Source: an uncultured Atopobiaceae bacterium
Lineage (GTDB): Bacteria > Actinomycetota > Coriobacteriia > Coriobacteriales > Atopobiaceae
Assembly: GCA_944321005.1 (NCBI GenBank)
Contig: CALUJT010000018.1
Location: 1-16,379, forward strand
DNA: 16,379 nucleotides
Direction of reading: 5' to 3'
The notes under the pieces: model-generated
Seen by the model: the letters and a program-made list of their open reading frames with translations, nothing else
Told to the model about the DNA's origin: nothing
Databases searched by the model: none
Translations under genes and position numbers: made by a program
In this document: positions 1 through 16,379 of the stretch, in pieces
Position numbering within the stretch: position 1 is the stretch's first letter
Layout: each line of letters opens with the position of its first letter

Positions 1-1710
1 CTCGTCGTATCCCCTCTCGGCAATTTGCCCGAGAGCGTCCCGTGCCAACAAGGCCAGCTCCTCGTCCGTGGCATCTCGGGCGAACTTGAGCTCAATGGTG
101 ACGAGCGGCCGGAGGCGAGAAACCAGGTGCCGGCTCGTGGGCGAGCTCTCCGGAGAGAGGCGTATGTCGGGACGTCCGAGCCCCCTCTCCCTGTTTGATA
201 CGGGGTCGGAATACCCGGACATGCCAAAGAGCAGCCCCAGGAGCAGCATGTGACAGGAGTTCTCGCTCACGAGGTCGAAAGAGCTCGCGGAGTCTCGCGC
301 GATTCTGCCGATGGCGGCGGCAACGCCCTGCTCGTCACCAGCAACTAGGGCCGAATGAAGCCGGGAGACGCGCGCCCTCCCTCCGGAGATCGCCGCGAAG
401 CGCTCCACTATCTCGCCCCTGAAGAGGCGGGCGATCTCGCGGTTCGGGATGCGCAGGGGCCTCAGCGAGACCGAGTCATTGGGAAGCGCGGTGTCCTCGG
501 TCGTGAGGTAGCCCGCAAGGTAGAGCATGCTCCAGAGGGCGTCCCCGGCGAGTCCCTCCTCCGGAAAGACCGTGCCCAGGTCGAGCGGGGCCCAGACCAC
601 TCCGTCAGGCTCGAGGAGCCCGTAAACCTGCTCGAGCGTCTCCTCGTCGGCGCCGCGCACAAGGTCGCCAATCACCGCGTTGCCCGAGGTGTTGCCCCAG
701 TAGACGTCAGCCGAGCAGTCGCGGTCCAGGTAGTTGAGCACGCTCCAGGGATTGTAGACGTCCGTGCCCCCAAAGCGGTAGCCGTCGTACCACTCCCTGA
801 GCTCGGCCATGCGGTCCCGGTGCCCCAGGTACGCGGACAGCGCCTCGACCTCGGCGTCCGTGAACCCGTATCGCTCGTCAAAGAGCGAGTCCAGCGCAGT
901 CGACACGACCAGGTTGTTGAGGTCCGAGAACACCGACTCCTTTGAGATCCTCTGCACGCCCGTGAGGCACGCGAAGGCGAGCGCCTCCCCGCCGTCCTTG
1001 AGAGCCCCCGTGAGCCAGCCCCTGAGAAAGGAGACCGCCTCCCGGTAGTAGCCCCCGCCCGGAGCGGAATAGGCCGCCATGATGGGGGCGTCGTACTCAT
1101 CGAGCAGCACCACGACGCCTCGCCCGTGATGCCTCCTGAGGCAGCGGGTGAGAAACAGCAGCGAGCCGGCGAGCTCGGGGTCGGATGATGTCCCGGCGAT
1201 GAGGCGCGACAGACGGTCGCGGTCGTCGCGCGTCATCGAGGGGCTCTCGTGAAGGTAGTCGTGGCGCCTTGCCTCAGCTGCCACGAGCTCACGCAGCGCC
1301 CCGTGAGCCTGCTCCCAGGAATCGCCTTTGGCCGCCCTAAAGCTCAGGTGAACGACCGGATAGGCGCCCTGGTGCTCGCGGTATCGGCCACCCTCGGCCT
1401 CCCAGACGCGCGTGCCCTCGAAGAGCTGGGCCCGGGAGCGACCGTCCGGCGGCGTCTCGAGAAAGGCCTTCAGCATCGTCATGTTGAGGGTCTTGCCAAA
1501 GCGCCGCGGCCTGCAGAAGAGGGTGGCGGTGTACCCCGAGTCCAGCACGTCGGCAATGAGCATGGTCTTGTCCACCAGCACGGATGCCTCCGCCGCCGGC
1601 TCGAAGCCGTCGCGACCGATGGGGAGCATGTGCCTTCCCGCGCGGTCTATGATGCGCGCGCCGGGCGCGGCCCAAACGCCGCCGCCGTGGTCTACGAGCT
1701 CAACGGACAT
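1..1710 (-). CDS. AAA-ATPase_like / PD-(D/E)XK nuclease-domain protein (3' end beyond left edge)
   Basis: An uninterrupted frame of 570 codons runs from an ATG at 1710 off the left edge, so only a short C-terminal tail is missing. GGGAGG lies six bases upstream of the ATG. The N-terminal half fits the AAA-ATPase_like family. It has the family's variant P-loop CRPRRFGKT at residues 66-74, not a canonical GxxxxGK, and a Walker B stretch ending LLDEYD at 202-207. The C-terminus fits the companion PD-(D/E)XK domain: D515, then ExK in IELKF (E540, K542), then a Q562-Y568 motif (GQIAERGY). Family members are common in Bacteroidetes, Clostridia and Coriobacteriia, often as multiple paralogues, and their biological role is not settled. 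The protein stands alone, with no partner gene on its strand in view. Family assignment is firm; function is not. Confidence 0.88.
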   Translation of the reverse strand, partial: MSVELVDHGGGVWAAPGARIIDRAGRHMLPIGRDGFEPAAEASVLVDKTMLIADVLDSGYTATLFCRPRRFGKTLNMTMLKAFLETPPDGRSRAQLFEGTRVWEAEGGRYREHQGAYPVVHLSFRAAKGDSWEQAHGALRELVAAEARRHDYLHESPSMTRDDRDRLSRLIAGTSSDPELAGSLLFLTRCLRRHHGRGVVVLLDEYDAPIMAAYSAPGGGYYREAVSFLRGWLTGALKDGGEALAFACLTGVQRISKESVFSDLNNLVVSTALDSLFDERYGFTDAEVEALSAYLGHRDRMAELREWYDGYRFGGTDVYNPWSVLNYLDRDCSADVYWGNTSGNAVIGDLVRGADEETLEQVYGLLEPDGVVWAPLDLGTVFPEEGLAGDALWSMLYLAGYLTTEDTALPNDSVSLRPLRIPNREIARLFRGEIVERFAAISGGRARVSRLHSALVAGDEQGVAAAIGRIARDSASSFDLVSENSCHMLLLGLLFGMSGYSDPVSNRERGLGRPDIRLSPESSPTSRHLVSRLRPLVTIELKFARDATDEELALLARDALGQIAERGYDE

Positions 1711-1859: not shown

Positions 1860-3593
1860 CTACGCGCTCAGCTTGGCGATGGTGCTCTCGGTGACCCGCA
1901 GCATCGTCTCAGGACCACCGACGCCCATGTAACCCGCCGTAAAGAAATCGTAAGTGAGGTAACTATCCGTAGTCCCGGCACCAAACCGATCGAGGGCGTC
2001 CCAGTACTCCTCGGAGGAGACGATGGCGCCGTCGAGCACGTAGACGTAGTCCCTCCCCTGGTAGTAGCCCCCGAAGTTGCCCACATAGCCAAAGGCGCCG
2101 CTGTCATCGAGACCAAGGACGGTAAAGGTCTCGGGCAGGACCAACAGGTAGTACAGGCGGCCGTCGACGCCCTTGGTGATCTCGATGTGGTAGAAGCCCC
2201 CGTTGTCCTCGGTGGCCCCGCCAGACCACTCCCTCACCACGGCGTCGGTCTTCTCGTCGTAGTTCCAGATCGCCACCCAGTAGCCGCCGCTCCCTGTTGC
2301 CGAGTTGGGGAACTCGGGGCGAGCGGAGGGAACGCGCCACGCGGTGAGGAGCCGCTCCTGCCCGTCGCCGAAGTCCTTGAGGTCCACGAGGCAGAGTCCG
2401 TCCACCCACTTGACGGCGCCGCCGTAGAACGTGCCGTTGACTAGGGTCGCCGGACCGTAGCTCGCCTGGAGTTCTGCCACCTTGTCGAGGTAGGCGGCAT
2501 AGCGGCCGCGGGACTCTTCGCCGACTCCGGGATTCTGCCCGTCGCCGGACTCGCCGGTGCCGGGCTTGCCGGGCTCGTCGGGTTCGTCGGGCTCGCCGCC
2601 GTCTCCGGCGCCGGGGTTCTGGCCGTCATCGCCGCCGCCGGGCTGTCCGGGCTGTCCGGGGTTCTGTCCATCGCCCTCGCCGGGACGGTCGCCCTCGTCG
2701 GGGTTCTGTCCGTCACCCTCGCCGGGAACGTCACCCTCGCCGGGATCCTGGTCGTCGTCACCTCCGGGCAGCTGCTCGTCGTCGCCGGGCTCCTGTCCCT
2801 CGCCAGGCTCCTGCCCCTCGCCAGGTTTCTGCCCCTCGCCGGGCTCCCCGGGCTGCTCGCCTTCCCCCGACTCCCCAGGCTGCTCCCCCTCTTCGCCGCC
2901 GGGCTCGTCATCGGGGAGAGTCTCGAGGATGTCGCGGTGGAACACGGTGATCATCTTGGCGAGCTGCTCGCGCAGGGCACTGCCCTGCGGCATGGCAAGA
3001 GGCGTGCCGGTGGACATGTCTCCCGTGAGAATGCCCTCGTCAACTGCCCAGGCCATGCCGTCCCAGAGCGTCACGGACGAGGAGTCGGCCATCGCGGAGA
3101 GGGCAACGCCGTCAGAGGAGACGTCGAGACCCTCGACGTTGCCCGCGTAGCGGGCGAGCATCGTGGCAAGCTGCTCGCGGGTGACCGGGTCGGCCGGGCC
3201 AAAGCTACCGTCCTCGTAGCCCGTGACGACCCCGACCTCGAGCGCCCAGGACACGGCCTCGGCGTAGAAGCAACTCTCGGAGTAGTCGCAGTCCGGGAAG
3301 CGGGGCGTCCCGTCGGCGGCGTCGGGCTCGCCGGCAACGCGCCAGAGGACCGTGACCACCTGGGAGCGCGCAACCGAGTCCCTGGGGCCAAAGCGGCCGT
3401 CTTCGTAGCCCGTCATGAGCCCCGCGCGCAGGACGTAGTCGAGGTACCCTCCCGTCACGTACCAGTCGCTGGCAGAGACGTCGGAGAAGCCCGCGTAGTA
3501 GGCGCGGGCAGTGAAGGGCGTGGCGAGAAGCGCCACGGCGAGCGCGAGCGCCGCCAGGAAGGGCGCGCGGCCCGTCTTCTTGTTGCTGCTCAT
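1860..3593 (-). CDS. Secreted protein with three SLH domains and an unidentified C-terminal domain
   Basis: The protein has 577 residues. The start is ATG 3593 because GGAGGAGG lies just upstream and a typical signal peptide follows directly: basic MSSNKK, a hydrophobic core, and likely cleavage after TARA at about residue 31. A longer in-frame start at 3695 would bury the signal peptide. Three SLH repeats follow, at about 35-87, 99-152 and 165-221, with the hallmark TGYEDG.FGP and (V)xREQL pieces. The third is degenerate (TGDMSTGTPLAMPQ). SLH triplets are known to hold proteins to the wall by binding pyruvylated secondary wall polymers. Residues about 227-362 form an acidic Pro/Gly linker built from PGEG and DGQNP units, probably a wall-spanning spacer. 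The last 215 or so residues look globular and Gly/Tyr/Trp-rich; I do not recognise the fold. Surface location is well supported; the activity is unknown. Confidence 0.9.
   Translation of the reverse strand: MSSNKKTGRAPFLAALALAVALLATPFTARAYYAGFSDVSASDWYVTGGYLDYVLRAGLMTGYEDGRFGPRDSVARSQVVTVLWRVAGEPDAADGTPRFPDCDYSESCFYAEAVSWALEVGVVTGYEDGSFGPADPVTREQLATMLARYAGNVEGLDVSSDGVALSAMADSSSVTLWDGMAWAVDEGILTGDMSTGTPLAMPQGSALREQLAKMITVFHRDILETLPDDEPGGEEGEQPGESGEGEQPGEPGEGQKPGEGQEPGEGQEPGDDEQLPGGDDDQDPGEGDVPGEGDGQNPDEGDRPGEGDGQNPGQPGQPGGGDDGQNPGAGDGGEPDEPDEPGKPGTGESGDGQNPGVGEESRGRYAAYLDKVAELQASYGPATLVNGTFYGGAVKWVDGLCLVDLKDFGDGQERLLTAWRVPSARPEFPNSATGSGGYWVAIWNYDEKTDAVVREWSGGATEDNGGFYHIEITKGVDGRLYYLLVLPETFTVLGLDDSGAFGYVGNFGGYYQGRDYVYVLDGAIVSSEEYWDALDRFGAGTTDSYLTYDFFTAGYMGVGGPETMLRVTESTIAKLSA
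2511..2912 (-). repeat. Degenerate repeats encoding the acidic Pro/Gly linker of the SLH protein
   Basis: This stretch encodes repeated units such as GEGQEPGEG, GEGDGQNP (twice, nearly identical) and DDGQNPGAGDGG. In the DNA, near-copies of a GGGTTCTGTCCGTC-like element recur around 2610, 2660, 2700 and 2530. Such low-complexity coding repeats often vary in copy number between strains through slippage or recombination. The linker probably lifts the C-terminal domain away from the SLH anchor. Confidence 0.7.
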
Positions 3594-3836
3594 CTCTCCT
3601 CCTCCGCGGAATGCGCGCCGTAGGCAGCGCGCGCTGTCGGCAAGGCGAACGTCATCAGAAACCTTAAGCCATGCACGTTTCCCCGGCGTTGCCAAAGGAC
3701 GAGTGTTCGGCGGACGGTTGAGACTAGGCCGACCCGACGGCAGGGGGCATCACATGAGGGGCACCGAGAAGAACGACGGCTCGACAGGTCGAGCGTCCCG
3801 AGCCCGTCACCGGGCACGCCCGAGCACCGTCAGGGG

Positions 3837-3842: not shown

Positions 3843-3882
3843 GTAGCAGATAGCGAGCCCCAAAATGTTCGAGGTATTCCAG

Positions 3883-5970
3883 ATGATGAACTCCATCCTC
3901 CCGGTCGCGCTCGTCATGTGCGTCGTGCTGCTGGCGCCCGGGTTCCTCACGTTCAGGGCGTTCGGCATGCCCCGGACGTGGGCCGCCGTATGCGCCCCGC
4001 TGGCGAGCCTCTCCCTCATAGCCATCGTGGGCGAGGCCATGGCGCTTGTGGGGGTGCCGTCCAGCGCCCCGCTCATGGGAGCAGTCCTGCTGGTTCCCAC
4101 GGGTGCCGCCGCCCTCGTCGCGCGCGGGCGCGTGCCGAGCCTCTCGCTCGGCAGGATCGAGCCGTGGGTCCCCCTTGTCTACCTCGTCATAGGGGCGGCG
4201 CTCGGGTACAACCTGTTCCTCACGCGCCTGGGGAGCCCGGACGCGCTCTTCCAGGCCTATGACGTCACCCAGCACCTCAACCTCATCCAGTCCATGGCCG
4301 ACTCCGGGAGGCTCTCCTCCCTCGGGACCAACTTCTACCTCTCCGCGGCGGACGCCGCCATAGACCCAATCAACTCCTCCGGCTTCTACCCGGCCGCGTG
4401 GCACTCGCTCTGCGCCCTCGTGGTCATGATCACGGGCGCCTCCGTCCCGCTCGTCATCAACGTCTCCATGTACGTGCTCGCCTGCCTCGCCTACCCCCTC
4501 GCCTTGCTCGCGCTCGTGGGCGTGCTCTTCCCGGGCAGGCGCGGGATGCAGCTCTGCGGCGCCCTCGTCTCGCTCGCCTTCGTGGCGTTCCCCTGGAACC
4601 TGCTCGCCTTTGGCCCTATCTACGCCAACGTCGCGGGCTTTGCCCTCATGCCCGTCGCGATGGCCCTCTTCGTCCACCTCCTCGCCGACGACCTCTCCGT
4701 CTCGGAGCGCGTCCGCACGCTCGTGACGCTCCTGGGGTGCGTCGTGGGCATGGCGCTCTGCCACCCCAACACCGTGTTCACGTGCGTGGCCGCGCTCACG
4801 CCCTACTGCGTCTCGCGCATCTGCTCGGCATGCGCCTCCAAGGGATGGGGCCTCGCGCGCAAGCTCGCGCTGAGCGCCCTCTTCTGCCTCTTCGTGGCGG
4901 CGTTCTGGCTCCTCTGCTTCAACCTACCCGCCCTCCAGGAGACGGTCCGGCACTTCTGGAAGCCCCATTCCTGGCTCTTCCAGCAGCTCGTCAACACCCT
5001 CACCCTCATCTACAACTACGGCTTCAACAGCGAGATAGCGGCACAGCTCGTGCTGGGGGCACTCGTGGTCATAGGCTTCGTCAAGGCCCTCAACACCCCC
5101 GGGAGGCGCTGGCTCGCCGCCTCCTACGCCGTCGTCTGCTACATCGTGCTCATCGGCGCCACCCACGAGGACGAGTACCGCCAGATCCTCGCCGGCTTCT
5201 GGTACACGGACCCCATGCGCCTCGCGGCCATCGCCGCGATATGCGCGACGCCTCTCGCCACCATGGGCATCAAGTGGGTCTACGACCTCGCGGTTAGGCT
5301 CGTCTCCGCCTACAACGCCCCGCGAAAGAGGCCCGCGCGCACGCCGGTCATAGCCGGTGCCGTGGGGGCACTCTTCCTCCTCCTCAACTTCATGCCGGAG
5401 CTCAGCCTCCCGGGACTCCACCACGTCTACACCCTCGAGGAGCAGACCAAGTACGAGAACGTGGAGTTCCGCGACTGGCCCAAGAGCGTCCACACCACCT
5501 ACGGCGACTACCGCGAGGTGGTGGAGGAGGTCTACTCCTACAAGAGCCCGCTCAGCGTCCAGGAGCAGCAGTTCCTCGACGAGGTGAAGGAGCTCGTGCC
5601 TGACGGTGCGCTCATAGTCAACAACCCCATGGACGGCAGCTTCCTCGCCTACGGCGCGGACGGCCTCAGGCTCTACTACCGCAACTTCATTGGCGTGGGC
5701 TCCGCAAGCGAGACGGAGGACAGCCGCTACATCAGGCTGCGCCTGTGCTTCTACGACTCCGACCCCCGGGTCCGCGAGGCCGTGGAGGCCGTGGACGCTC
5801 AGTACGTCCTCGTGATGCAGGACGGAGAGTTCAACTCCGCCTTCATCAACCTGCGCGGGGACTACAACGACGCTGATTTCGCCGGCATCACGTCCATCAC
5901 GGACGACACGCCGGGCTTCAGCGTGGTCAAGCGCCAGGCGGGCCTCGTCCTCTACAAGATCGAGCGCTAG
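3883..5970 (+). CDS. Large multi-spanning membrane protein, DUF6541 type (GT-C-like candidate)
   Basis: The protein has 695 residues from ATG 3883. That start is preferred because GAGGT (3871-3875) lies seven bases ahead of it; the in-frame ATG at 3865 has no ribosome site and would leave a very short leader after the candidate promoter. Residues 1 to about 530 are strongly hydrophobic, with roughly 12 membrane segments. The final 165 or so residues form a polar, probably extracytoplasmic domain. The first large loop after the early helices carries D120, D127, H131, D157, D161 and H174 (AYDVTQHL and following), which resembles the acidic first loop of GT-C glycosyltransferases that use polyprenyl-phosphate sugars. 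Position ahead of a polyprenyl-sugar-type GT2 and a DUF2304 protein supports that role. The family name is recalled from similarity, and the enzymatic role is inference; a polymerase is an alternative. Confidence 0.8.
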   Translation: MMNSILPVALVMCVVLLAPGFLTFRAFGMPRTWAAVCAPLASLSLIAIVGEAMALVGVPSSAPLMGAVLLVPTGAAALVARGRVPSLSLGRIEPWVPLVYLVIGAALGYNLFLTRLGSPDALFQAYDVTQHLNLIQSMADSGRLSSLGTNFYLSAADAAIDPINSSGFYPAAWHSLCALVVMITGASVPLVINVSMYVLACLAYPLALLALVGVLFPGRRGMQLCGALVSLAFVAFPWNLLAFGPIYANVAGFALMPVAMALFVHLLADDLSVSERVRTLVTLLGCVVGMALCHPNTVFTCVAALTPYCVSRICSACASKGWGLARKLALSALFCLFVAAFWLLCFNLPALQETVRHFWKPHSWLFQQLVNTLTLIYNYGFNSEIAAQLVLGALVVIGFVKALNTPGRRWLAASYAVVCYIVLIGATHEDEYRQILAGFWYTDPMRLAAIAAICATPLATMGIKWVYDLAVRLVSAYNAPRKRPARTPVIAGAVGALFLLLNFMPELSLPGLHHVYTLEEQTKYENVEFRDWPKSVHTTYGDYREVVEEVYSYKSPLSVQEQQFLDEVKELVPDGALIVNNPMDGSFLAYGADGLRLYYRNFIGVGSASETEDSRYIRLRLCFYDSDPRVREAVEAVDAQYVLVMQDGEFNSAFINLRGDYNDADFAGITSITDDTPGFSVVKRQAGLVLYKIER

Positions 5971-6032
5971 CCGGTCCAACGAGCAATGCTAGACTTGATG
6001 CGTACCGTAGTCTCCCAGGGAGCCGCCCGAAC

Positions 6033-6716
6033 ATGAGAGTCCTTGCCGTCGTGCCCGCCTTCAACGAGGAAGAGTGCCTCGCCAACACCGTGGCCTCGCT
6101 CAAGAGTACCTGCCCGGACGTCGACTGCCTCGTGGTCAATGACGGCTCGAGCGACGGCACGTGGGACATCGTGCGCAAGAACCGCCTCCACGGCGCCAAC
6201 CTCCCCGTCAACACCGGGCTCACCTCCGCTTTCCGCACCGGAATGAAATACGCCCTCAGGCACGGCTACGACGCCGTGGTCCAGTTCGACGCGGACGGCC
6301 AGCACCTCCCCTCCTACATCCCCGTCATGGCGCGCAAGCTCGAGGAGACGGGCGCCAACATGGTCATCGCCTCGCGCTACCTCGACGGGACGGTAAGGCC
6401 CTCGGGCGCACGCGGCGCCGGCTCGCGCCTCATCACGTTCCTCATCAGGCTCACCACCGGGGCCAGGATCACGGACCCCACAAGCGGCATGCGCATGTAC
6501 AGCAAGGAGATGATTCGCCTCTTTGCCACCTCCTTCGACTGTGCGCCCGAGCCCGACATGGTGGCCCTCGCCGCACGCCGGTACGGCCCGGTCGTGGAGA
6601 TCCAGGCGACGATGCAGGAGCGGCAGGGCGGCGAGAGCTACCTCAAGCTCGGCAACGTGATCAAGTACATGTCGAGGACGTGCCTCTCCATCCTCATGCT
6701 CCGCTTCCTTAGGTAG
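6033..6716 (+). CDS. GT2 glycosyltransferase, polyprenyl-phosphate-sugar synthase type (GacI/DPM1-like)
   Basis: This 227-residue protein is one GT-A catalytic domain with no C-terminal membrane helices. Motifs: VVPAFNEE at 6-13, NDGSSDGT at 36-43, the metal-binding DADGQH at 86-91, a TDPTSGMRMYS region around 147-157, and QERQGGESY at 195-203. This set is typical of dolichol-phosphate-mannose-synthase-like enzymes that move a sugar from a nucleotide donor to a polyprenyl phosphate on the inner membrane face. In streptococci the similar GacI makes undecaprenyl-phosphate-GlcNAc and is strongly stimulated by its DUF2304 partner GacJ. The same partner type is encoded eight bases downstream here. 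The sugar cannot be read from the sequence. The gap from the upstream gene is 62 bases and the ribosome site (AGGGAG, 11 bases from the ATG) is only fair. Confidence 0.9.
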   Translation: MRVLAVVPAFNEEECLANTVASLKSTCPDVDCLVVNDGSSDGTWDIVRKNRLHGANLPVNTGLTSAFRTGMKYALRHGYDAVVQFDADGQHLPSYIPVMARKLEETGANMVIASRYLDGTVRPSGARGAGSRLITFLIRLTTGARITDPTSGMRMYSKEMIRLFATSFDCAPEPDMVALAARRYGPVVEIQATMQERQGGESYLKLGNVIKYMSRTCLSILMLRFLR

Positions 6717-6724
6717 GTGTTCCG

Positions 6725-7087
6725 ATGCTCCCCACTCAGCTCCGCGTACTGCTCGTCATCGGCGCGCTCCTGGCCCTGCTCATCGTCTGCAACCGCGTGA
6801 AGAAGTCCAAGATCCTCATGGAGGACGCCATCTTCTGGACGGTCCTCGCCTTCGTGCTGGTGCTCCTCGCCGTCTTCCCGCAGATCGCCATCTGCGTCTC
6901 ACAGGCGCTGGGCTTCGTCTCCGCGAGCAACTTCGTCTACCTCGTGGTCATGGTGCTCCTCCTCTGGAAGGTGTTCACCAACTCCTCGGAGATCTCACGC
7001 CTCAAGGCAAAGGTCAACGAGCTCGCACAGGAGATTGCGCTCGCGCACGTGGACGAGGACGAAAGCGCCGAGAAGAACTGCGGGTAG
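6725..7087 (+). CDS. DUF2304 small membrane protein (GacJ-like partner of the GT2)
   Basis: The protein has 120 residues and three predicted membrane helices at about 5-22, 36-58 and 68-86. A basic loop RVKKSK (24-29) lies between helices 1 and 2. A short amphipathic, probably coiled-coil tail (about 88-108, SEISRLKAKVNELAQEI) precedes an acidic end. This pattern matches DUF2304. Such proteins are known from streptococcal group carbohydrate loci, where GacJ binds the GacI GT2 and raises its activity at the membrane. The start follows the GT2 stop by eight bases with an AGGTAGGTG ribosome site between, so the two are almost certainly co-translated, which suits a stoichiometric complex. The GT2 has no membrane anchor of its own, and this protein would supply it. 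Confidence 0.87.
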   Translation: MLPTQLRVLLVIGALLALLIVCNRVKKSKILMEDAIFWTVLAFVLVLLAVFPQIAICVSQALGFVSASNFVYLVVMVLLLWKVFTNSSEISRLKAKVNELAQEIALAHVDEDESAEKNCG

Positions 7088-7100
7088 CGAAGACGGACCC

Positions 7101-8006
7101 CTAGAGAGCCCCCGCTAGGAAGAGAAGCCGGAGAGCCATCTCCTCGAGGGGCTTCTGCCTCAGACGCACGGGAATGAGCGCCTTCGAGAGCCTCCCTCCG
7201 TCGAGCGCCCTGTCGAGCAGGAGCCGGCGCTTCGGTGGCATGTCGCCTCCGCATACCTCGCGCAGTCGCTCGAGCTGCTCGGTAATGCGGAAGAGCTCGC
7301 CCTTCTCGAAGAAGGTCCTGATTCGGTAGCGCAGCAGGGAGAGGCCGCCGGCGCCCGTGGGACTCACGTTCGAGCCGGTCCTTCGGTACTCGAGACACGC
7401 GAAGTCGTCAAAGGTGAGCTCGCCCACCGCAGTCGCAAGCAGCGCGAGCCACCAGTCGTGGCAGTAGACCCCCTCGGAGCCGGCCTCCGCGACAAGGTCG
7501 GCCAGCGCGCGATTGATGACAGTCGTGTTGCCCGAGACCATGTTCTCGTAGAGCATCGTGGGGAAGCCCACCCCTATGCGGTTGAGGCGCGAGCGCCCCT
7601 GCGGGCGCATGTCGGCGTCGCAGAAGACGTACTCGGCGCAGTAGAGCTGCGGCACCACCGGGTCCTTCTCGGCCAGGACCTCGAGGGCGCGGGAGAGCTT
7701 GTCGGGGTGCCAGACGTCGTCCTGGTCGGCGAGGGCTATGAAGTCCGCGTCCGCGGGCACTCGGGATATGAGGTCGATGAAGGAGCCCACGACGCCGAGG
7801 TTCTCTCCCCGGACGAGCGCGATCTCACCGGCGCGCTCGTACGTCTCGAGGATGCCCACGGTACCGTCAGACGATCCGTCGTCCCGCACGAGGACCGAGA
7901 GGTTCCCAGCGTCTTGGGCGAGCACGCTGTCAAGCTGCTCGGCGAGGTGCTCGGCGCCGTTGTACGTTGACATCACCACAAACGTCCTCGGCGCCTCGCG
8001 TCCCAT
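7101..8006 (-). CDS. GT2 glycosyltransferase, rhamnosyltransferase-like
   Basis: The protein has 301 residues from ATG 8006, preceded by a strong AGGAGG. It has a GT-A fold at the N-terminus: VVMSTYNGAEHLAEQLDS (10-27), RDDGSSDGT (41-49), an NLGVVGSF segment (69-76) and the metal-binding ADQDDVW (93-99). A conserved CHDWW element follows further on, near the position expected for the catalytic base region. This motif pattern is common in transferases that build rhamnose-containing surface polymers (RgpB-like), but donor and acceptor cannot be assigned from sequence alone. It probably adds a sugar to a lipid-linked oligosaccharide on the cytoplasmic face. It converges on the DUF2304 gene with only 13 bases between stop codons, so there is no room for a separate terminator. 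It is divergent from the next GT2. Confidence 0.87.
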   Translation of the reverse strand: MGREAPRTFVVMSTYNGAEHLAEQLDSVLAQDAGNLSVLVRDDGSSDGTVGILETYERAGEIALVRGENLGVVGSFIDLISRVPADADFIALADQDDVWHPDKLSRALEVLAEKDPVVPQLYCAEYVFCDADMRPQGRSRLNRIGVGFPTMLYENMVSGNTTVINRALADLVAEAGSEGVYCHDWWLALLATAVGELTFDDFACLEYRRTGSNVSPTGAGGLSLLRYRIRTFFEKGELFRITEQLERLREVCGGDMPPKRRLLLDRALDGGRLSKALIPVRLRQKPLEEMALRLLFLAGAL

Positions 8007-9261: not shown

Positions 9262-11613
9262 CTAGAAGATGTACACCGTCGAGCCGACGCTCATGTTGTC
9301 GTGGAGCCACTTCGCCTTGTCGTAGTCGGGGATGCAGATGCAGCCGCTCCCATAGAAGCCGTAGTGGAAGCCCTGCCCCTCGTCATAGCCCTTGCCCTCG
9401 ACGTAGCGCATGTTGTCGGAGCTGGGGGACGACCACCAGTCCTCGACGTAGCCAACATACCAGTCGTTGACGTTGATGCAGTTGGGCTCCTTCCAGTAGC
9501 CCCGAGCGGTGATGTACACGGTGTGAACGCCGGTAAACGTGTTGCCGCTCGTGATCACGTCCATGGAGTTCGAGAGCACCCACCCGTCGGAGCTGCTGCG
9601 GAAGACCGTTGCTCGGTCCCTCGCCTTGTCGACCACGGTGACGATCCCGGTCTGGCTCCCCACCTGGGAGGCACGCTCCCGCATCGCGGAGATATACCCG
9701 GCGTCTCCCCATATGTCGGAGACGTCACCCGCGGGAGCGGGGTCCTCGGGAGTCGGGTCGACCGTCTCGGTGTAGTCCGTGGGCACAAAGGTCCACGAGC
9801 GGGCGGCATCGGACCCGGGCTCGGAGATGACGACGGGAGAGCCGGAGACGGGCGTGCCGTCGCCAGCGGCAAGGACAAAGTCGCCAAGGGCCGACGTCAC
9901 CTGCACGCCTCCGTTGGGGGCCACGGAGAAAGCCCAGCACTGGGCGGGACTGTCGTTAGACTCGTACTGCTGGACCACGGTCCCAGAGGCCCCGTTTGCG
10001 TCGCGCACGTCGAGGACGAGTCCAGAGGCGGCGTTGGAGATCTTGTACTGGCCAGACGCCCTCCTCTCGACGAGCCACTTCTGAGCGGACGTGCCATTGC
10101 TCTCGTAGGTCTGCAGGGCGAGCGCGTTCTGGGCGAGCGCGTTCGGAACGTCGATGACCTGGCTGCCGAGGGCGCGGCTGGCGATCACGTAGTACCCGTC
10201 ATCGACAAGGGCCACCAGAGAGAGCGCCCAACCTCGAGCCTGGCCTCCCGGAGCAGAGGACGTCACCACCCTGGTCCCGTCCTCCGCGACCCCTCCGCTG
10301 AGGGACAGCGCACGATGGGAGGAGACGTTCTCGAATATGTAGCCCCACCCGCCGACGGTGACGCGCCAGCGAGCCTGGTCCGAGATCGAGGAAGCGCCCT
10401 CCAGCCCACTCCCGGACTCCGAGAGGTACAGGCCCGTGTCGGCGTTCCTCAGCGTGAAGGTCCCGTCCTCGAGAGGCGCGACCTCCCACTTCTGGGAGAG
10501 CTCGCCCCCCGTCTCCCCCACCTGGAGAGCGGCATCCGCATCGGAGGCACCGGAGACCTCGAGGGCCATCGAGTCGGCGGCAGCGGGCGCAATCCGATAG
10601 ATGCCCCTGAGGCCCAGGGTCACCGGGGAAAGCTCCCAGCGCTGGGCGGCGCTGCCATTGGGCGCGTACATCTGAATCTGCGCGCCGTCAGTCGCCCGAG
10701 CGTCGGGCACGTCGAGGGCAAGGCCGGAGATGGCCGAGCGGATCTCGTAGCCGTCCCCGCTCTCGACGATGCTCCAGAGCTGGGCGATGGTGCCGTTGCA
10801 CTCATACTGCTGAATCCTCACGCCAGACGCGGCGCTGGCGTCTGGCACGTCCACGGACTTGTTCGAGCAGAGGGACACCAACGTGTAGAAGCCGGTATTT
10901 GCGTCGAAGGACAGCCCCCACCTCTGGGCGTTGGATCCGTTGTCGCCCCAGAGCTGGATCCTCGCACCGTTGTCCGTCGAGGCGTTGCTCACGTCAAGGA
11001 CCTTGGCCGGGTCGAGCGAGCTGCCGATCTGATACACGCCGCTGTCAACGGTGCGCTCGACCTTTACCAGGGACCACTTCTGGGCCATGCTCCCGTTGGG
11101 CTGGTACACTTGAACGTTGGTCCCGTCGGCAGACTCGCCCATCTCGACGTCGAGGTTCAGGCCGTTGAGCGCAGAGACGATGGACAGAGAGCCATCGTCG
11201 TTGCCCACCACGTCCCATAGCTGCCCCGGGCGACCGTCGAAGGCGGAGATCTGAACGTTGGTGCCCGACGACATGCCGTCACCGGAGACCGAGAGCGCGC
11301 GCCCGGATATCGAGTTCCTGATCGCGTAGCTGTCCCCGACACGCTCCAGGCGCCAGTTCTGCCCACCGTCCCACGTTCTGGAGAAGAGCTGCACGTTGGA
11401 CCCGTCAGACAGCTGGCTGCCGGCAACGTCCAGGTACTTGTCGCTCCCCTCGCCAACGATCAGGTAGACGCCCTCCTCGACGCCGTTCCCGTCCTCTGCG
11501 AGCGCCCGAGAGGGCACGAGCGAGAAGAGCCCGAGCACGGACAGGGCGACCGCACAAAGAAGCGCTGCAAGGAGGCGTATTCTCGGCGACGCGTGATTAT
11601 GACCACGGCTCAT
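9262..11613 (-). CDS. Secreted ricin-type lectin-repeat protein with C-terminal YkuD-like L,D-transpeptidase domain
   Basis: The protein has 783 residues from ATG 11613, with GGGGA six bases upstream. The signal peptide spans about 1-39, with likely cleavage after SRALA. Residues about 45-630 hold some 12 repeats of roughly 48 residues ending in QxW or a relaxed form (QNW, QLW, QKW, QRW, QLW, QRW, QKW, QARW, ARGW, QKW, QCW, RSW). That would make four beta-trefoils of the ricin B type, which bind carbohydrate. A short Pro-rich joint follows. The last 131 residues (653-783) look like a YkuD domain, with a TVVDKARDRATVF strand, a VITSGNTFTGVHTVYIT segment, and a terminal Cys motif H750-YGFYGSG-C758. 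YkuD enzymes form 3-3 cross-links or attach proteins to peptidoglycan. The canonical SHGC.R is changed here to GSGCIC, so activity is likely but unproven. It probably acts in the wall, held by glycan binding. Confidence 0.86.
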   Translation of the reverse strand: MSRGHNHASPRIRLLAALLCAVALSVLGLFSLVPSRALAEDGNGVEEGVYLIVGEGSDKYLDVAGSQLSDGSNVQLFSRTWDGGQNWRLERVGDSYAIRNSISGRALSVSGDGMSSGTNVQISAFDGRPGQLWDVVGNDDGSLSIVSALNGLNLDVEMGESADGTNVQVYQPNGSMAQKWSLVKVERTVDSGVYQIGSSLDPAKVLDVSNASTDNGARIQLWGDNGSNAQRWGLSFDANTGFYTLVSLCSNKSVDVPDASAASGVRIQQYECNGTIAQLWSIVESGDGYEIRSAISGLALDVPDARATDGAQIQMYAPNGSAAQRWELSPVTLGLRGIYRIAPAAADSMALEVSGASDADAALQVGETGGELSQKWEVAPLEDGTFTLRNADTGLYLSESGSGLEGASSISDQARWRVTVGGWGYIFENVSSHRALSLSGGVAEDGTRVVTSSAPGGQARGWALSLVALVDDGYYVIASRALGSQVIDVPNALAQNALALQTYESNGTSAQKWLVERRASGQYKISNAASGLVLDVRDANGASGTVVQQYESNDSPAQCWAFSVAPNGGVQVTSALGDFVLAAGDGTPVSGSPVVISEPGSDAARSWTFVPTDYTETVDPTPEDPAPAGDVSDIWGDAGYISAMRERASQVGSQTGIVTVVDKARDRATVFRSSSDGWVLSNSMDVITSGNTFTGVHTVYITARGYWKEPNCINVNDWYVGYVEDWWSSPSSDNMRYVEGKGYDEGQGFHYGFYGSGCICIPDYDKAKWLHDNMSVGSTVYIF

Positions 11614-13826: not shown

Positions 13827-15287
13827 CTAGCGCCCCCTCCTACCCATAATATCCCTCATGGTGTTGAGCAGGTAGGTGAGCTCCTCCACGCGGAAGAGGC
13901 GCGCGATGGCCAGGTACGCCACGGCCATGACCAGCACCTGCAGGGCAACGACGGCAATGTCGGGGAGGCCGAGAAGCCCGATCGGGAACGCCAGGGCGCC
14001 CGAGACGGCCGAGAGCAGGAACGCCGGGCAGATGTCACGAACCTGCTCGCGGTAGGAGTAGCCGATGACGCGCCTGTTGGGAGACGCGTTGATGAAGGTG
14101 CAGATAACGCCGGTCACCGCATAGCCCACCACGATGAAGAAGATGTCACGCAGCACGAACGCGGTGAAGCACATGACGGAGACGCCCACGACCTTCTTGA
14201 TAATCTCGAGCCTGAGGAAGAGGTCGCTCCTGCCAACGCCGTTGAGCACCTGGAGGTTGGTCGTGTGGATGGGCTGCAGGGCATAGATGAAGCAGTACAT
14301 CTGGAGAAAGGGAACGCACGGCAGCCACTTCTCCCCCAGAAGCAACGTCACGAGGGGCGCCGCCACGATGCCAAACGCGCTCATGGCCGGGACGATGAGG
14401 AAGGTGCTCGTCTTGAGGGCGCGTCGAGCGAGTCGCTTGACCTGGTGCCTGTCCTCCTGGACATGCGCCACCGCAGAGAGCATGACGGGCTGTATGGCCC
14501 CGTCGAGCGTGACGCCGAGCGCCTGTGGGTACTTCTTGCCCTGAGAGACGTAGCCGAGGTCCGTGCTCGTGAAGACCTTGCCGATTATAAGATCGGAGAG
14601 GCTCTGGTAGCCCTGGTCGAGCAGCCCCGAGACGAGGAGCTTCCATCCAAAGCGGAAGAGCGTCGCCGCGCGCGCCCCGTCGAACACGACACGTGGCTTC
14701 CAGGGAATCTGAGCCGCCAGCACGACGCACTTGCAGAGCTGGTAGAGAAGCTGCTGGATCACAAGGGCCCAGATGCCGGCGCCCAAGAGAGCCGAGGCGA
14801 TGCTCACGCAGCCGGAGACGACGCCCGCGGTGACCGTGGAGCGAAAGGTCTTGTGGAACTCGAGGTTGCGCGCGACGATGGCCTCCTGGATTGCGTTGTA
14901 GGCGTTCACCACCAGGATGAGCACAAGTGCGCGCAGCGGCCACACCACCCCCGGCATGCCGTAGAAGCCCGCGATGAGGGGCGCGGCGAGAAAGACGGCG
15001 GCGTAGAGCGCCACGGAGATGGCGAGGCTCATCCAGAAGACGGTCGAGTAGTCCCGCTCGGTCACGTCCGGCGCCTGGATGACGGCCGTGTTGAGGCCGG
15101 ACTGCACGATGACGTTGCCCACGTTCACGAAGACGAGCATGATCGCGAGCATGCCAAACTCGTCCGGCGCCAGGATGCGCGCCATGACGATCTGCACCAC
15201 GAGGGTGATGGCGGCCGCCCCGCCCTGCTCGAAGAGCTTCCAGAAGAGCGAGCGTATGGTCGAGGACTTGAGGTCTGAGCTGGGCAT
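13827..15287 (-). CDS. Polysaccharide flippase, Wzx/MVF type (lipid-linked oligosaccharide exporter)
   Basis: The protein has 486 residues from ATG 15287, with AGGGAG four bases upstream. The same frame stays open upstream to 15725, but that part overlaps the SMR-like genes and encodes an Arg/Pro-rich stretch with no membrane segment, so it is rejected. The N-terminus (SLFWKLFEQGGAAAITLVVQ, about 13-32) and the following VMARILAPDEFGMLAI signature are typical of the polysaccharide-synthesis MATE-like exporters. About 12-14 hydrophobic helices span the protein. A GYQSLSDLIIGKVFTSTDLGYVSQGKK region corresponds to the family's conserved middle. It should move an undecaprenyl-diphosphate-linked repeat unit to the outer face. 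Eight bases separate it from the upstream SMR-like gene. A closely similar role in teichuronic acid export (TuaB-like) is an alternative. Confidence 0.92.
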   Translation of the reverse strand: MPSSDLKSSTIRSLFWKLFEQGGAAAITLVVQIVMARILAPDEFGMLAIMLVFVNVGNVIVQSGLNTAVIQAPDVTERDYSTVFWMSLAISVALYAAVFLAAPLIAGFYGMPGVVWPLRALVLILVVNAYNAIQEAIVARNLEFHKTFRSTVTAGVVSGCVSIASALLGAGIWALVIQQLLYQLCKCVVLAAQIPWKPRVVFDGARAATLFRFGWKLLVSGLLDQGYQSLSDLIIGKVFTSTDLGYVSQGKKYPQALGVTLDGAIQPVMLSAVAHVQEDRHQVKRLARRALKTSTFLIVPAMSAFGIVAAPLVTLLLGEKWLPCVPFLQMYCFIYALQPIHTTNLQVLNGVGRSDLFLRLEIIKKVVGVSVMCFTAFVLRDIFFIVVGYAVTGVICTFINASPNRRVIGYSYREQVRDICPAFLLSAVSGALAFPIGLLGLPDIAVVALQVLVMAVAYLAIARLFRVEELTYLLNTMRDIMGRRGR

Positions 15288-15295
15288 GCGGCTCC

Positions 15296-15649
15296 CTAGA
15301 CGCCGGTCGAGTAGATGAGGATGCCGCAGATGACGAGCGCGAGCGCGAGCACCTTGCGGCGGTTGAGGCGCTCGTGGAAGATGAGGACGCCGAACGCCGT
15401 CACGTAGATGTAGCCGGTGGCGTCGAGGACGGGCCCCATTGAGAGCGGTATGACCTTGTACGCGAGCGTAGAGAGCAGGGTCGACACCACGAAGAGGACA
15501 TAGGCAAAGACGACGAGCGGGTTGAGGTACTCCCCGAGGGGGCCCTCGTGGGTCCTGAGGGCGGACTTTTTGAGAAGAACCTGGGAGATGCCGCTCACGA
15601 ACACGCCGAAGAGCGCGATGGCGGCATAGGCAAGGACGGACTCGCTCAC
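15296..15649 (-). CDS. Small EamA/SMR-like four-helix membrane protein, second of a pair
   Basis: The protein has 117 residues and four hydrophobic helices. Its start is GTG 15649, which shares GTGA with the stop of the upstream gene, a four-base overlap implying translational coupling; GGAGG lies nine bases upstream. The fourth-helix region VLIFHERLNRRKVLALALVI and the GPVLDATGYIYV segment fit the half-size EamA/SMR transporter fold. Known pairs of such proteins include ArnE/ArnF, which are required to flip undecaprenyl-phosphate-aminoarabinose, and small multidrug pairs that act as heterodimers. In a polysaccharide operon a polyprenyl-phosphate-sugar flippase is more likely than drug export, but this is inference. 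The helices resemble the C-terminal half of a full-length EamA protein. Confidence 0.8.
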   Translation of the reverse strand: MSESVLAYAAIALFGVFVSGISQVLLKKSALRTHEGPLGEYLNPLVVFAYVLFVVSTLLSTLAYKVIPLSMGPVLDATGYIYVTAFGVLIFHERLNRRKVLALALVICGILIYSTGV

Positions 15650-16053
15650 GACCGATCGCCTCCCCTCGCCTCAACGTCGTCTGGTGCGGGCTCGGGGTCG
15701 TCCCCCGCCATGGCAAAGAGAACAACCCCCGCGAGCACCACGACGGCGCCCAGGACCTTCTGCCAGCTCACGGTCTCGTCAAAGAGAAGCGCGCCCCAGA
15801 CGATGCCCCAGATCACGGTAACCGCGCGGTTGGCGTAGGCCGTGGTGAGCGGAATCCTCTTGATGACCTGCTGCCAGCCTATGGCATAGACGCCCAGCAC
15901 GACGATCATGCCGCCGTAGCACAGGACGAACTCCGCGCTCATGAACGGGAACTGCGCCGCGAGCTTGCTCATGATGCCGCTCAGGGAGAAGACGGCCAAA
16001 AGGAGGTGGAGCGCGAGAAGCGTCTTGCCCCGAGTTCCGGAGGCGGCGCTCAT
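15646..16053 (-). CDS. Small EamA/SMR-like four-helix membrane protein, first of a pair
   Basis: The protein has 135 residues from ATG 16053, which overlaps the stop of the ATP-grasp-like gene by ATGA. It has four hydrophobic helices. The segment RIPLTTAYANRAVTVIWGIV with LLFDETVSWQKVLGAVVV is a classic SMR/EamA signature (the PLTxAYAxxxxxxxx and E-x-x-x-x-x-K-x-L-G pieces). An acidic hydrophilic tail of about 20 residues (DDPEPAPDDVEARGGD) follows the last helix; the partner protein lacks it. The coupling to the next gene by a four-base overlap argues for an obligate heterodimer. A pair of this kind may flip a lipid-phosphate sugar or amino sugar; a drug/metabolite transporter remains possible. 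Confidence 0.8.
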   Translation of the reverse strand: MSAASGTRGKTLLALHLLLAVFSLSGIMSKLAAQFPFMSAEFVLCYGGMIVVLGVYAIGWQQVIKRIPLTTAYANRAVTVIWGIVWGALLFDETVSWQKVLGAVVVLAGVVLFAMAGDDPEPAPDDVEARGGDRS

Positions 16054-16379
16054 GCCCTCTCGCCCCCGTAGACGACCCTTACGTGACGGGAGGCGGCGCC
16101 GAGGAGCTCCTCCATCTGGCGCACCCCGTCAAAGCGGAGAAAGAGGATGCCGAGGGCCTTGTTCGCCCCGTCGAGCGCGCTGACCTCGTCGCCCTCCTCC
16201 ACGTACATGACGCTGCGGTACACGTGAGGGCCAAGCTCCTCGGACAGGGAGAGCCCTCCGTACGTCCCCGGACGGTCCGCGTGGACGACGTAGGTGGCAT
16301 AGGCGCCCTCCGCGGACGCGCCGTCGAACGAGACGTCCTGGGAGAAGTCCCCCATGGCGCAGCGGACGTTGGCCTCCAC
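16050..16379 (-). CDS. C-terminal part of a probable ATP-grasp protein (5' end beyond right edge)
   Basis: Only the last 109 or so codons are present and the frame is open to the right edge; the GTG at the edge is best read as an internal Val. Visible features are ANVRCAMGDFSQDVSFD near the start, a GGLSLSEELGPHVYRSVMYVEEGD middle, and a near-terminal GILFLRFDGVRQMEELL. These resemble the carboxy-terminal piece of ATP-grasp (carbamoyl-phosphate-synthase-like) proteins that I recall from surface-polysaccharide loci of gut Firmicutes and Actinobacteria. The diagnostic ATP-binding core is outside the window, so the call is tentative. ATP-grasp enzymes join a carboxylate to an amine or thiol, and the downstream aminotransferase could supply an amino sugar as acceptor. 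ATGA overlap with the next gene shows it belongs to the operon. Confidence 0.45.
   Translation of the reverse strand: MEANVRCAMGDFSQDVSFDGASAEGAYATYVVHADRPGTYGGLSLSEELGPHVYRSVMYVEEGDEVSALDGANKALGILFLRFDGVRQMEELLGAASRHVRVVYGGERA

What the first reader, a model, noticed from the sequence alone, without database searches (positions are those of the whole stretch)
3883..7087. Candidate three-component extracytoplasmic glycosylation module: DUF6541 + GT2 + DUF2304
A GT2 with polyprenyl-phosphate-sugar-synthase motifs is followed after eight bases by a DUF2304 protein. That pair is the GacI/GacJ arrangement that makes undecaprenyl-phosphate-GlcNAc in group A streptococci. In streptococci a GT-C protein (GacL) then uses the donor outside the cell. 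Here the third gene is a DUF6541-type protein with many helices, an acidic His-containing first outer loop (D120, D127, H131) and a C-terminal polar domain. If it is the acceptor-side transferase, DUF6541 would gain a function as a GT-C-like enzyme that decorates a wall polymer.
Basis: partly seen in the sequence, partly recalled or inferred. Interest (0 to 1): 0.7.

Follow-up and report, generated by a model that had tools for sequence, protein, structure and literature searches.

The report
Cell-wall sugar-decorating enzyme trio
Three neighbouring genes in a gut actinobacterium probably load a sugar onto a membrane lipid inside the cell and attach it to a surface polymer outside, which links a protein family with no assigned function to an enzyme already studied in mycobacteria.

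Summary
The trio is real: DUF6541 (3865-5970), GT2 (6033-6716) and DUF2304 (6725-7087), one strand, opposite-strand genes on both sides. The DUF6541 model (pLDDT 95) has a GT-C fold: the 5 Foldseek PDB matches with E<=1e-3 are AftA, two oligosaccharyltransferases and two ArnT entries. In the order, 79 of 80 genomes with DUF6541 also have DUF2304, against 43 of 117 without. Mycobacterium-like genomes with a PpgS-DUF2304 pair also carry a DUF6541 protein, in at least six of eight beside GlfT1. By locus and N-terminus this is Rv3779, reported to put galactosamine on arabinogalactan from a polyprenyl-phosphate donor. So the trio is best read as a GacI/J/L- or PpgS/Rv3632/Rv3779-type decoration system with DUF6541 as its acceptor-side GT-C enzyme. 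Sugar, acceptor and flippase are unproven. Unresolved: C. glutamicum, said to have an Rv3779 ortholog, shows no DUF6541 match. Searches of the held papers for DUF6541 and PF20176 found none.

The parts
3865..5970 (+). DUF6541 protein, predicted GT-C-fold acceptor-side glycosyltransferase (701 aa; alternative start 3883)
   Evidence: PF20176 E 7e-155; GT-C fold of the model; invariant D133, H137, R452
6033..6716 (+). GT2, predicted polyprenyl-phosphate sugar synthase without membrane helices of its own
   Evidence: PF00535; PDB sequence relatives ArnC and DPMS; best NCBIfam match PpgS at 76 bits, far under its cut-off of 370
6725..7087 (+). DUF2304 small membrane protein, predicted partner of the GT2 (GacJ/Rv3632-like)
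   Evidence: PF10066 E 1e-25; model with helices 4-26, 32-50, 52-62 and a long helix 67-119
13827..15245 (-). Wzx-type flippase, one candidate for turning the lipid-sugar over (start uncertain; the mechanical ORF runs to 15725)
   Evidence: PF13440 312 bits; homologues in L004, L005, L007, L009, L010 and part of L008
15296..16053 (-). two half-size EamA proteins overlapping by 4 bases (15296-15649, 15646-16053), ArnE/ArnF-like in layout, another flippase candidate
   Evidence: EamA 30.4 bits (cut-off 28.2) and 27.6 bits (below it); ArnE/ArnF NCBIfam matches far below cut-off; otherwise found only in L006

Best explanation
The three genes form one multi-component transmembrane glycosylation system. 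Step 1 (inferred from homology): the GT2, held at the membrane by the DUF2304 protein, moves a sugar from a nucleotide to polyprenyl phosphate on the inner face. Step 2 (inferred; gene not identified): a flippase turns the lipid-sugar over. Step 3 (fold and conserved residues shown by computation, activity inferred): the DUF6541 protein, a GT-C-fold enzyme with an invariant Asp/His loop, a conserved WYTDPxR loop and a C-terminal globular domain, moves the sugar to an envelope glycan outside the cell. DUF6541 is very probably the family of mycobacterial Rv3779, so an amino sugar (GlcNAc or GalNAc) on a cell-wall polysaccharide is the likeliest product.
For: GT-C fold. D133 and H137 in 71 of 71 sequences. 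Co-occurrence with DUF2304: 79/80 against 43/117 genomes, Fisher 4e-22; 43/43 against 19/46 genera, Fisher 9e-11. Proximity: 8 of 14 one-contig genomes within 20 kb against 0.38 expected. Adjacent on the same strand in 14 of 54 loci, in both gene orders. All 8 genomes over the PpgS cut-off carry both a full-length DUF6541 and a DUF2304 gene 8-16 bases from the PpgS match; in 6 of 6 scanned, GlfT1 lies close to the DUF6541 gene, as expected for Rv3779 (PMC3229680, passages); N-terminus as in a printed Rv3779 primer. Rv3779 reported to transfer galactosamine to arabinogalactan (PMC9671496, PMC3485146, PMC5964476, passages).
Against: No activity was tested. 19 of 54 loci have no GT2/DUF2304 in the held flank, most of them with full 10-kb flanks. 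G260 and G316 have DUF6541 without DUF2304, and the Methanosarcina acetivorans control has DUF6541 but no DUF2304 match. C. glutamicum, said to have an Rv3779 ortholog, has DUF2304 but no PF20176 match. Counting also the 21 phylum genomes with weak PF20176 matches over the cut-off, of which 9 have DUF2304, the phylum figure falls from 32 of 34 to 41 of 55. An earlier report gave Rv3779 a polyprenyl-phosphomannose synthase activity in vitro. Other glycan genes also gather in these loci, so part of the proximity is what any glycan gene would show.
Confidence: 0.8

Rival explanations
1. Same chemistry, different acceptor: DUF6541 puts the sugar on a protein or on a membrane lipid or lipoglycan rather than on a wall polysaccharide.
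Against: Neighbours of DUF6541 are polysaccharide genes (LicD, ABC-2 permeases, RmlB-like); the studied family member is reported to act on arabinogalactan. A shared fold does not fix the acceptor.
Confidence: 0.1
2. DUF6541 is a GT-C enzyme that builds a polymer or handles a diphosphate-linked oligosaccharide, and lies near GT2-DUF2304 only because glycan genes cluster.
For: GT2-DUF2304 is absent from the held flank of 19 of 54 loci; G260 and G316 have DUF6541 without DUF2304.
Against: Genome-wide and genus-wide co-occurrence is not explained by clustering alone; GT2-DUF2304 is more frequent among neighbours than LicD, the flippase cluster or the RmlB-like cluster.
Confidence: 0.06
3. The lipid-sugar made by GT2-DUF2304 is used by another GT-C enzyme of the cell, such as the YfhO protein, and DUF6541 does something else.
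For: The own genome has a YfhO match at C4:2101-4326 and a GtrA at C4:19451-19804.
Against: YfhO lies on another contig, while the trio is closely spaced on one strand and co-occurs 79/80. PMT_2, DUF2142 and PMT were not found in the own genome, which is only 85% complete.
Confidence: 0.04

Closest known systems
Arabinogalactan galactosamine pathway PpgS (Rv3631) - Rv3632 - Rv3779 of mycobacteria
   Same: GT2 followed closely by a DUF2304 protein, with a DUF6541 acceptor-side enzyme; shared blocks around D133/H137, D449/R452 and D590/G591.
   Different: Low identity (25% over 225 and 22% over 186 residues for DUF6541; 35% over 158 for the GT2). In most of these genomes DUF6541 is far from the PpgS pair (about 200 kb in G038 and G150; other contigs in five; 7 kb in G298), whereas here the three genes are contiguous. 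No arabinogalactan is expected here (recalled).
GacI / GacJ / GacK / GacL of group A streptococci
   Same: GT2 + DUF2304 pair making polyprenyl-P-GlcNAc, and a GT-C enzyme outside (PMC8035078, PMC8327497, passages).
   Different: GacL is listed as PMT-2-like; the window's DUF6541 matches only PF20176 in Pfam. The flippase here is not identified.
GT-C enzymes with solved structures (STT3/PglB/AglB, ArnT, AftA, AftD)
   Same: Fold of the core and C-terminal domain.
   Different: About 10% identity; three extra N-terminal helices that most rows do not cover (AftA aligns from residue 29).

Membership tests
GT-C glycosyltransferase superfamily | multi-spanning GT-C fold | tested here: met
GT-C glycosyltransferase superfamily | conserved acidic residue in the first outer loop of the core | tested here: met
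   D133 in 71 of 71, at the start of helix 134-147; equivalence to known catalytic Asp is by position and recalled knowledge, no residue-level superposition
GT-C glycosyltransferase superfamily | transfer from a polyprenyl-linked sugar | not testable with these tools
   needs an assay
PF20176 (DUF6541), the family that very probably includes Rv3779 | profile match over cut-off | tested here: met
   window 517 bits; L094 and L097 (Rv3779-like) 290 and 288 bits; cut-off 29
Multi-component transmembrane glycosylation system | GT2 polyprenyl-phosphate sugar synthase | tested here: met
   by homology only
Multi-component transmembrane glycosylation system | flippase for the lipid-sugar | tested here: inconclusive
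   Wzx and EamA pair 7-9 kb away on the other strand, GtrA on another contig; none tied to the trio
Multi-component transmembrane glycosylation system | GT-C acceptor-side enzyme | tested here: met
   fold only
PpgS equivalog (NF058614) | score over the curated cut-off of 370 bits | tested here: not met
   window GT2 scores 76.4 bits
GacL-like (PMT_2/PMT) acceptor-side enzymes | match to PMT_2 or PMT | tested here: not met
   the only Pfam match of the window protein at E<=0.01 is PF20176

The most novel reading that the evidence does not exclude
DUF6541 is an unrecognised GT-C family largely dedicated to polyprenyl-phosphate sugars made by the split GT2-DUF2304 synthase. Gut Coriobacteriia use it to decorate a wall polysaccharide that has hardly been described, while related genomes place other membrane proteins (DUF2142, DUF7657) beside the same synthase, so the last enzyme is exchangeable and sets the acceptor.
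Probability: 0.45. Interest if true: 0.65.

Novelty: new member of a known kind. Interest (0 to 1): 0.52.

Why it matters
It gives a Pfam family of unknown function, over its cut-off in 80 of 197 sampled genomes of this order, a testable enzymatic role and an active-site signature. It ties the envelope glycans of these gut bacteria to pathways studied in mycobacteria and streptococci, and names the three genes to delete in order to find the unknown side chain.

Tried and rejected
PpgS membership of the GT2 and PMT_2/PMT membership of DUF6541: not met. Sequence search of the PDB with DUF6541: only chance-level hits. EamA pair as a conserved flippase: found in only one other locus, L006. Promoter/terminator scan: no promoter-like site and three weak terminator-like sites, no use made of it. 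Literature: DUF6541 and PF20176 gave 0 papers each; DUF2304 gave 1; a search on Coriobacteria wall polysaccharide gave one review, seen in the listing only. The 2010 paper on the galactosamine pathway is not held, so its content is taken from passages of PMC9671496, PMC3485146, PMC3229680 and PMC5964476. PMC8035078 and PMC8327497 were also read as passages only. PMC8562490 was seen in listings only.

Exchange of DUF6541 for other proteins: I read the flanks of 20 of the 43 order genomes with DUF2304 only. My membrane-protein filter found a candidate in 16 of the 20. I scanned candidates from 14 of these; L112 and L123 were not scanned. DUF2142 was found in 6 and DUF7657/DUF7654 in 1; the other 7 gave Wzx-like (3), sulfatase-like (1) or no match (3). 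The idea rests on 7 of 20.

Dropped before a count: in the phylum sample I compared only the 34 genomes with PF20176 matches of at least 250 bits (32 with DUF2304). A further 21 genomes have weak matches over the cut-off (about 29-46 bits, mostly partial); 9 of these 21 have DUF2304. With them the figure is 41 of 55 against 106 of 341 others. The 31-kb threshold was chosen after seeing the distances; the 20-kb and 5-kb figures are given beside it.
Full report
Observation. The window holds three same-strand genes, DUF6541 (3865-5970), GT2 (6033-6716) and DUF2304 (6725-7087), with gaps of 62 and 8 bases. The genes on either side, an SLH-domain protein (1860-3695) and another GT2 (7101-8006), are on the other strand, so the trio looks like an operon of its own. 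Pfam assignments are far above cut-offs. The closest named relatives (L002-L005 and L011, 56-62% identity) are Atopobium, Olsenella and Thermophilibacter, so the source is very probably a member of the Atopobiaceae, class Coriobacteriia (names recalled). The genome held is 2.24 Mb in 294 contigs, 85% complete, with one DUF6541 gene.

Conserved residues. In 71 DUF6541 sequences (56 from the loci and the window, 15 from other Actinomycetota), D133, H137, Y175, P176, P243, G404, R452 and G591 are in 71 of 71, Y447 in 70 and D449 in 68; D126 is D in only 27. D133 begins helix 134-147, shortly after helix 102-117, near the start of the part that aligns with GT-C enzymes. I take it as the counterpart of their catalytic Asp by position (recalled knowledge; no residue-level superposition was available).

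Linkage in the order. In 197 genomes, PF20176 is over its cut-off in 80 and PF10066 in 122. 79 of the 80 also have DUF2304, against 43 of the other 117 (Fisher 4e-22; G260 is the exception). By genus, which reduces shared ancestry, it is 43 of 43 against 19 of 46 (Fisher 9e-11). In the 79, the nearest pair is within 1 kb in 17, 1-5 kb in 9, 5-20 kb in 27, 20-50 kb in 9, over 50 kb in 3 and on different contigs in 14. In the 14 one-contig genomes with both, 2 are within 5 kb (mean of random placement 0.12; 130 of 20,000 trials reach it), 8 within 20 kb (mean 0.38, never reached) and 13 within 31 kb (mean 0.54, never reached; threshold chosen afterwards); G301 has them 769 kb apart. In the 53 loci plus the window, 35 of 54 have the GacI-like GT2 or DUF2304 in the held flank, 14 of them adjacent on the same strand and 3 adjacent on the opposite strand; 19 have neither, and most of these 19 have full 10-kb flanks. 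A few genomes are represented by two loci. Both gene orders occur: DUF6541-GT2-DUF2304 (window, L005, L006, L008-L010 and others) and GT2-DUF2304-DUF6541 (L013, L014, L052).

Outside the order. In 396 Actinomycetota genomes, 34 have a DUF6541 match of at least 250 bits, 21 in the order and 13 outside. 32 of the 34 have DUF2304 over cut-off, against 115 of 362 others (Fisher 4e-13); G260 and G316 lack it. A further 21 genomes have weak, mostly partial matches that still pass the cut-off; 9 of them have DUF2304, which makes 41 of 55 if they are counted. G257, outside the order, has the window's own gene order with a DUF6541, a GT2 and a DUF2304 in 3 kb (L105).

The precedent. The same 396 genomes were searched for PpgS, the polyprenyl-phospho-GalNAc synthase (NF058614): 8 are over its cut-off. 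All 8 carry a full-length DUF6541 (251-364 bits) and a DUF2304 match 8-16 bases from the PpgS match. I read the DUF6541 loci of all 8 (L094-L101). A GlfT1 candidate near the DUF6541 gene was scanned in 6 and passed its equivalog cut-off in all 6; L096 and L097 were not scanned. In L094 the galactan exporter ATPase Wzt also passed. A held review places the arabinogalactan cluster at Rv3779-Rv3809c (PMC3229680, passages); that GlfT1 is Rv3782 is recalled. The DUF6541 frame of L097 encodes VGLWFG, which matches the start amplified by the Rv3779 primer printed in PMC3485146 (14 of 16 bases in L095, L097, L100 and L101, 13 in L098, 12 in L099; in L094 and L096 the best match lies elsewhere). I conclude that Rv3779 is very probably a DUF6541 protein; I did not handle the Rv3779 sequence itself. 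Rv3779 is reported to transfer galactosamine to arabinogalactan from the lipid made by PpgS, with help from Rv3632 (PMC9671496, PMC3485146, PMC5964476, passages). An earlier report gave it polyprenyl-phosphomannose synthase activity in vitro; PMC3485146 found that it could not replace that function in vivo. The gene in the place of Rv3632 here (L109) is DUF2304. Window and L097 DUF6541 share low identity (25% over 225 and 22% over 186 residues), but these blocks hold the signature residues.

Points that do not fit. PMC9671496 calls C. glutamicum Cgp_0658 an ortholog of Rv3779, yet the C. glutamicum control genome rings for DUF2304 and not for PF20176. Methanosarcina acetivorans rings for PF20176 and not for DUF2304. 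I could not resolve either.

When DUF6541 is absent. From 20 of the 43 order genomes with DUF2304 only, I read up to about 18 kb around the pair. None has DUF6541 there. DUF2142 lies near in 6 (L110, L114, L115, L116, L120, L124) and DUF7657/DUF7654 in 1 (L128); the rest had Wzx-like, sulfatase-like, unmatched, unscanned or no such membrane protein. That DUF2142 is GT-C-like is recalled, not tested.

Flippase and polymer. Candidates for the flippase are the Wzx at 13827-15245 (homologues in L004, L005, L007, L009, L010 and part of L008), the EamA pair at 15296-16053 (otherwise only in L006) and a GtrA beside an RmlA-like nucleotidyltransferase on contig C4. Recurring neighbours of DUF6541 in the 54 loci are the GacI-like GT2 (33), a broad GT2 group (29), DUF2304 (27), LicD (19), an unmatched flippase-like cluster (14), an RmlB-like dehydratase (13), ABC-2 permeases (12) and an RmlA-like cluster (10) (RmlA and flippase by resemblance). 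This would suit an ABC-exported, perhaps rhamnose-containing wall polysaccharide. That is inference. The own genome also has a YfhO protein, another possible GT-C enzyme.

Verdict. It is a new member of a known kind of system, and the family very probably already has a studied member under another name. The acceptor, the sugar and the flippase remain open.

Noticed in passing
9262-11613 (-): A 783-aa protein with many ricin-type lectin repeats (11 stretches) and a C-terminal tail without Pfam match that resembles an L,D-transpeptidase active site (HYGFYGSGCI; motif recalled).
   Followed up: partly
1860-3695 (-): SLH-domain protein with a long Gly/Glu/Pro/Gln-rich low-complexity stretch, divergent from the trio.
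   Followed up: partly
1-1710 (-): AAA-ATPase-like protein (PF09820, 127 bits) running off the window's left end.
   Followed up: partly
15296-16053 (-): Two half-size EamA proteins overlapping by 4 bases, next to the Wzx gene; otherwise found only in L006.
   Followed up: partly
L110, L114, L115, L116, L120, L124, L128: GT2-DUF2304 pairs without DUF6541 have a DUF2142 protein (6 loci) or a DUF7657/DUF7654 protein (1 locus) within about 9 kb, perhaps exchangeable last enzymes.
   Followed up: partly
L131-L133 and L130 (own genome contig C4): A YfhO-family protein (C4:2101-4326) about 15 kb from a GtrA gene (C4:19451-19804), possibly a second transmembrane glycosylation system of the same cell.
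   Followed up: no
16050-16379 (-): C-terminal end of a protein with a sub-threshold match to L-amino acid ligase C-terminal domain 2 (25.4 bits, cut-off 29.4), cut by the window edge.
   Followed up: no
C. glutamicum control genome: Has PpgS/DUF2304-type matches but no PF20176 match, although a paper calls Cgp_0658 an Rv3779 ortholog.
   Followed up: no
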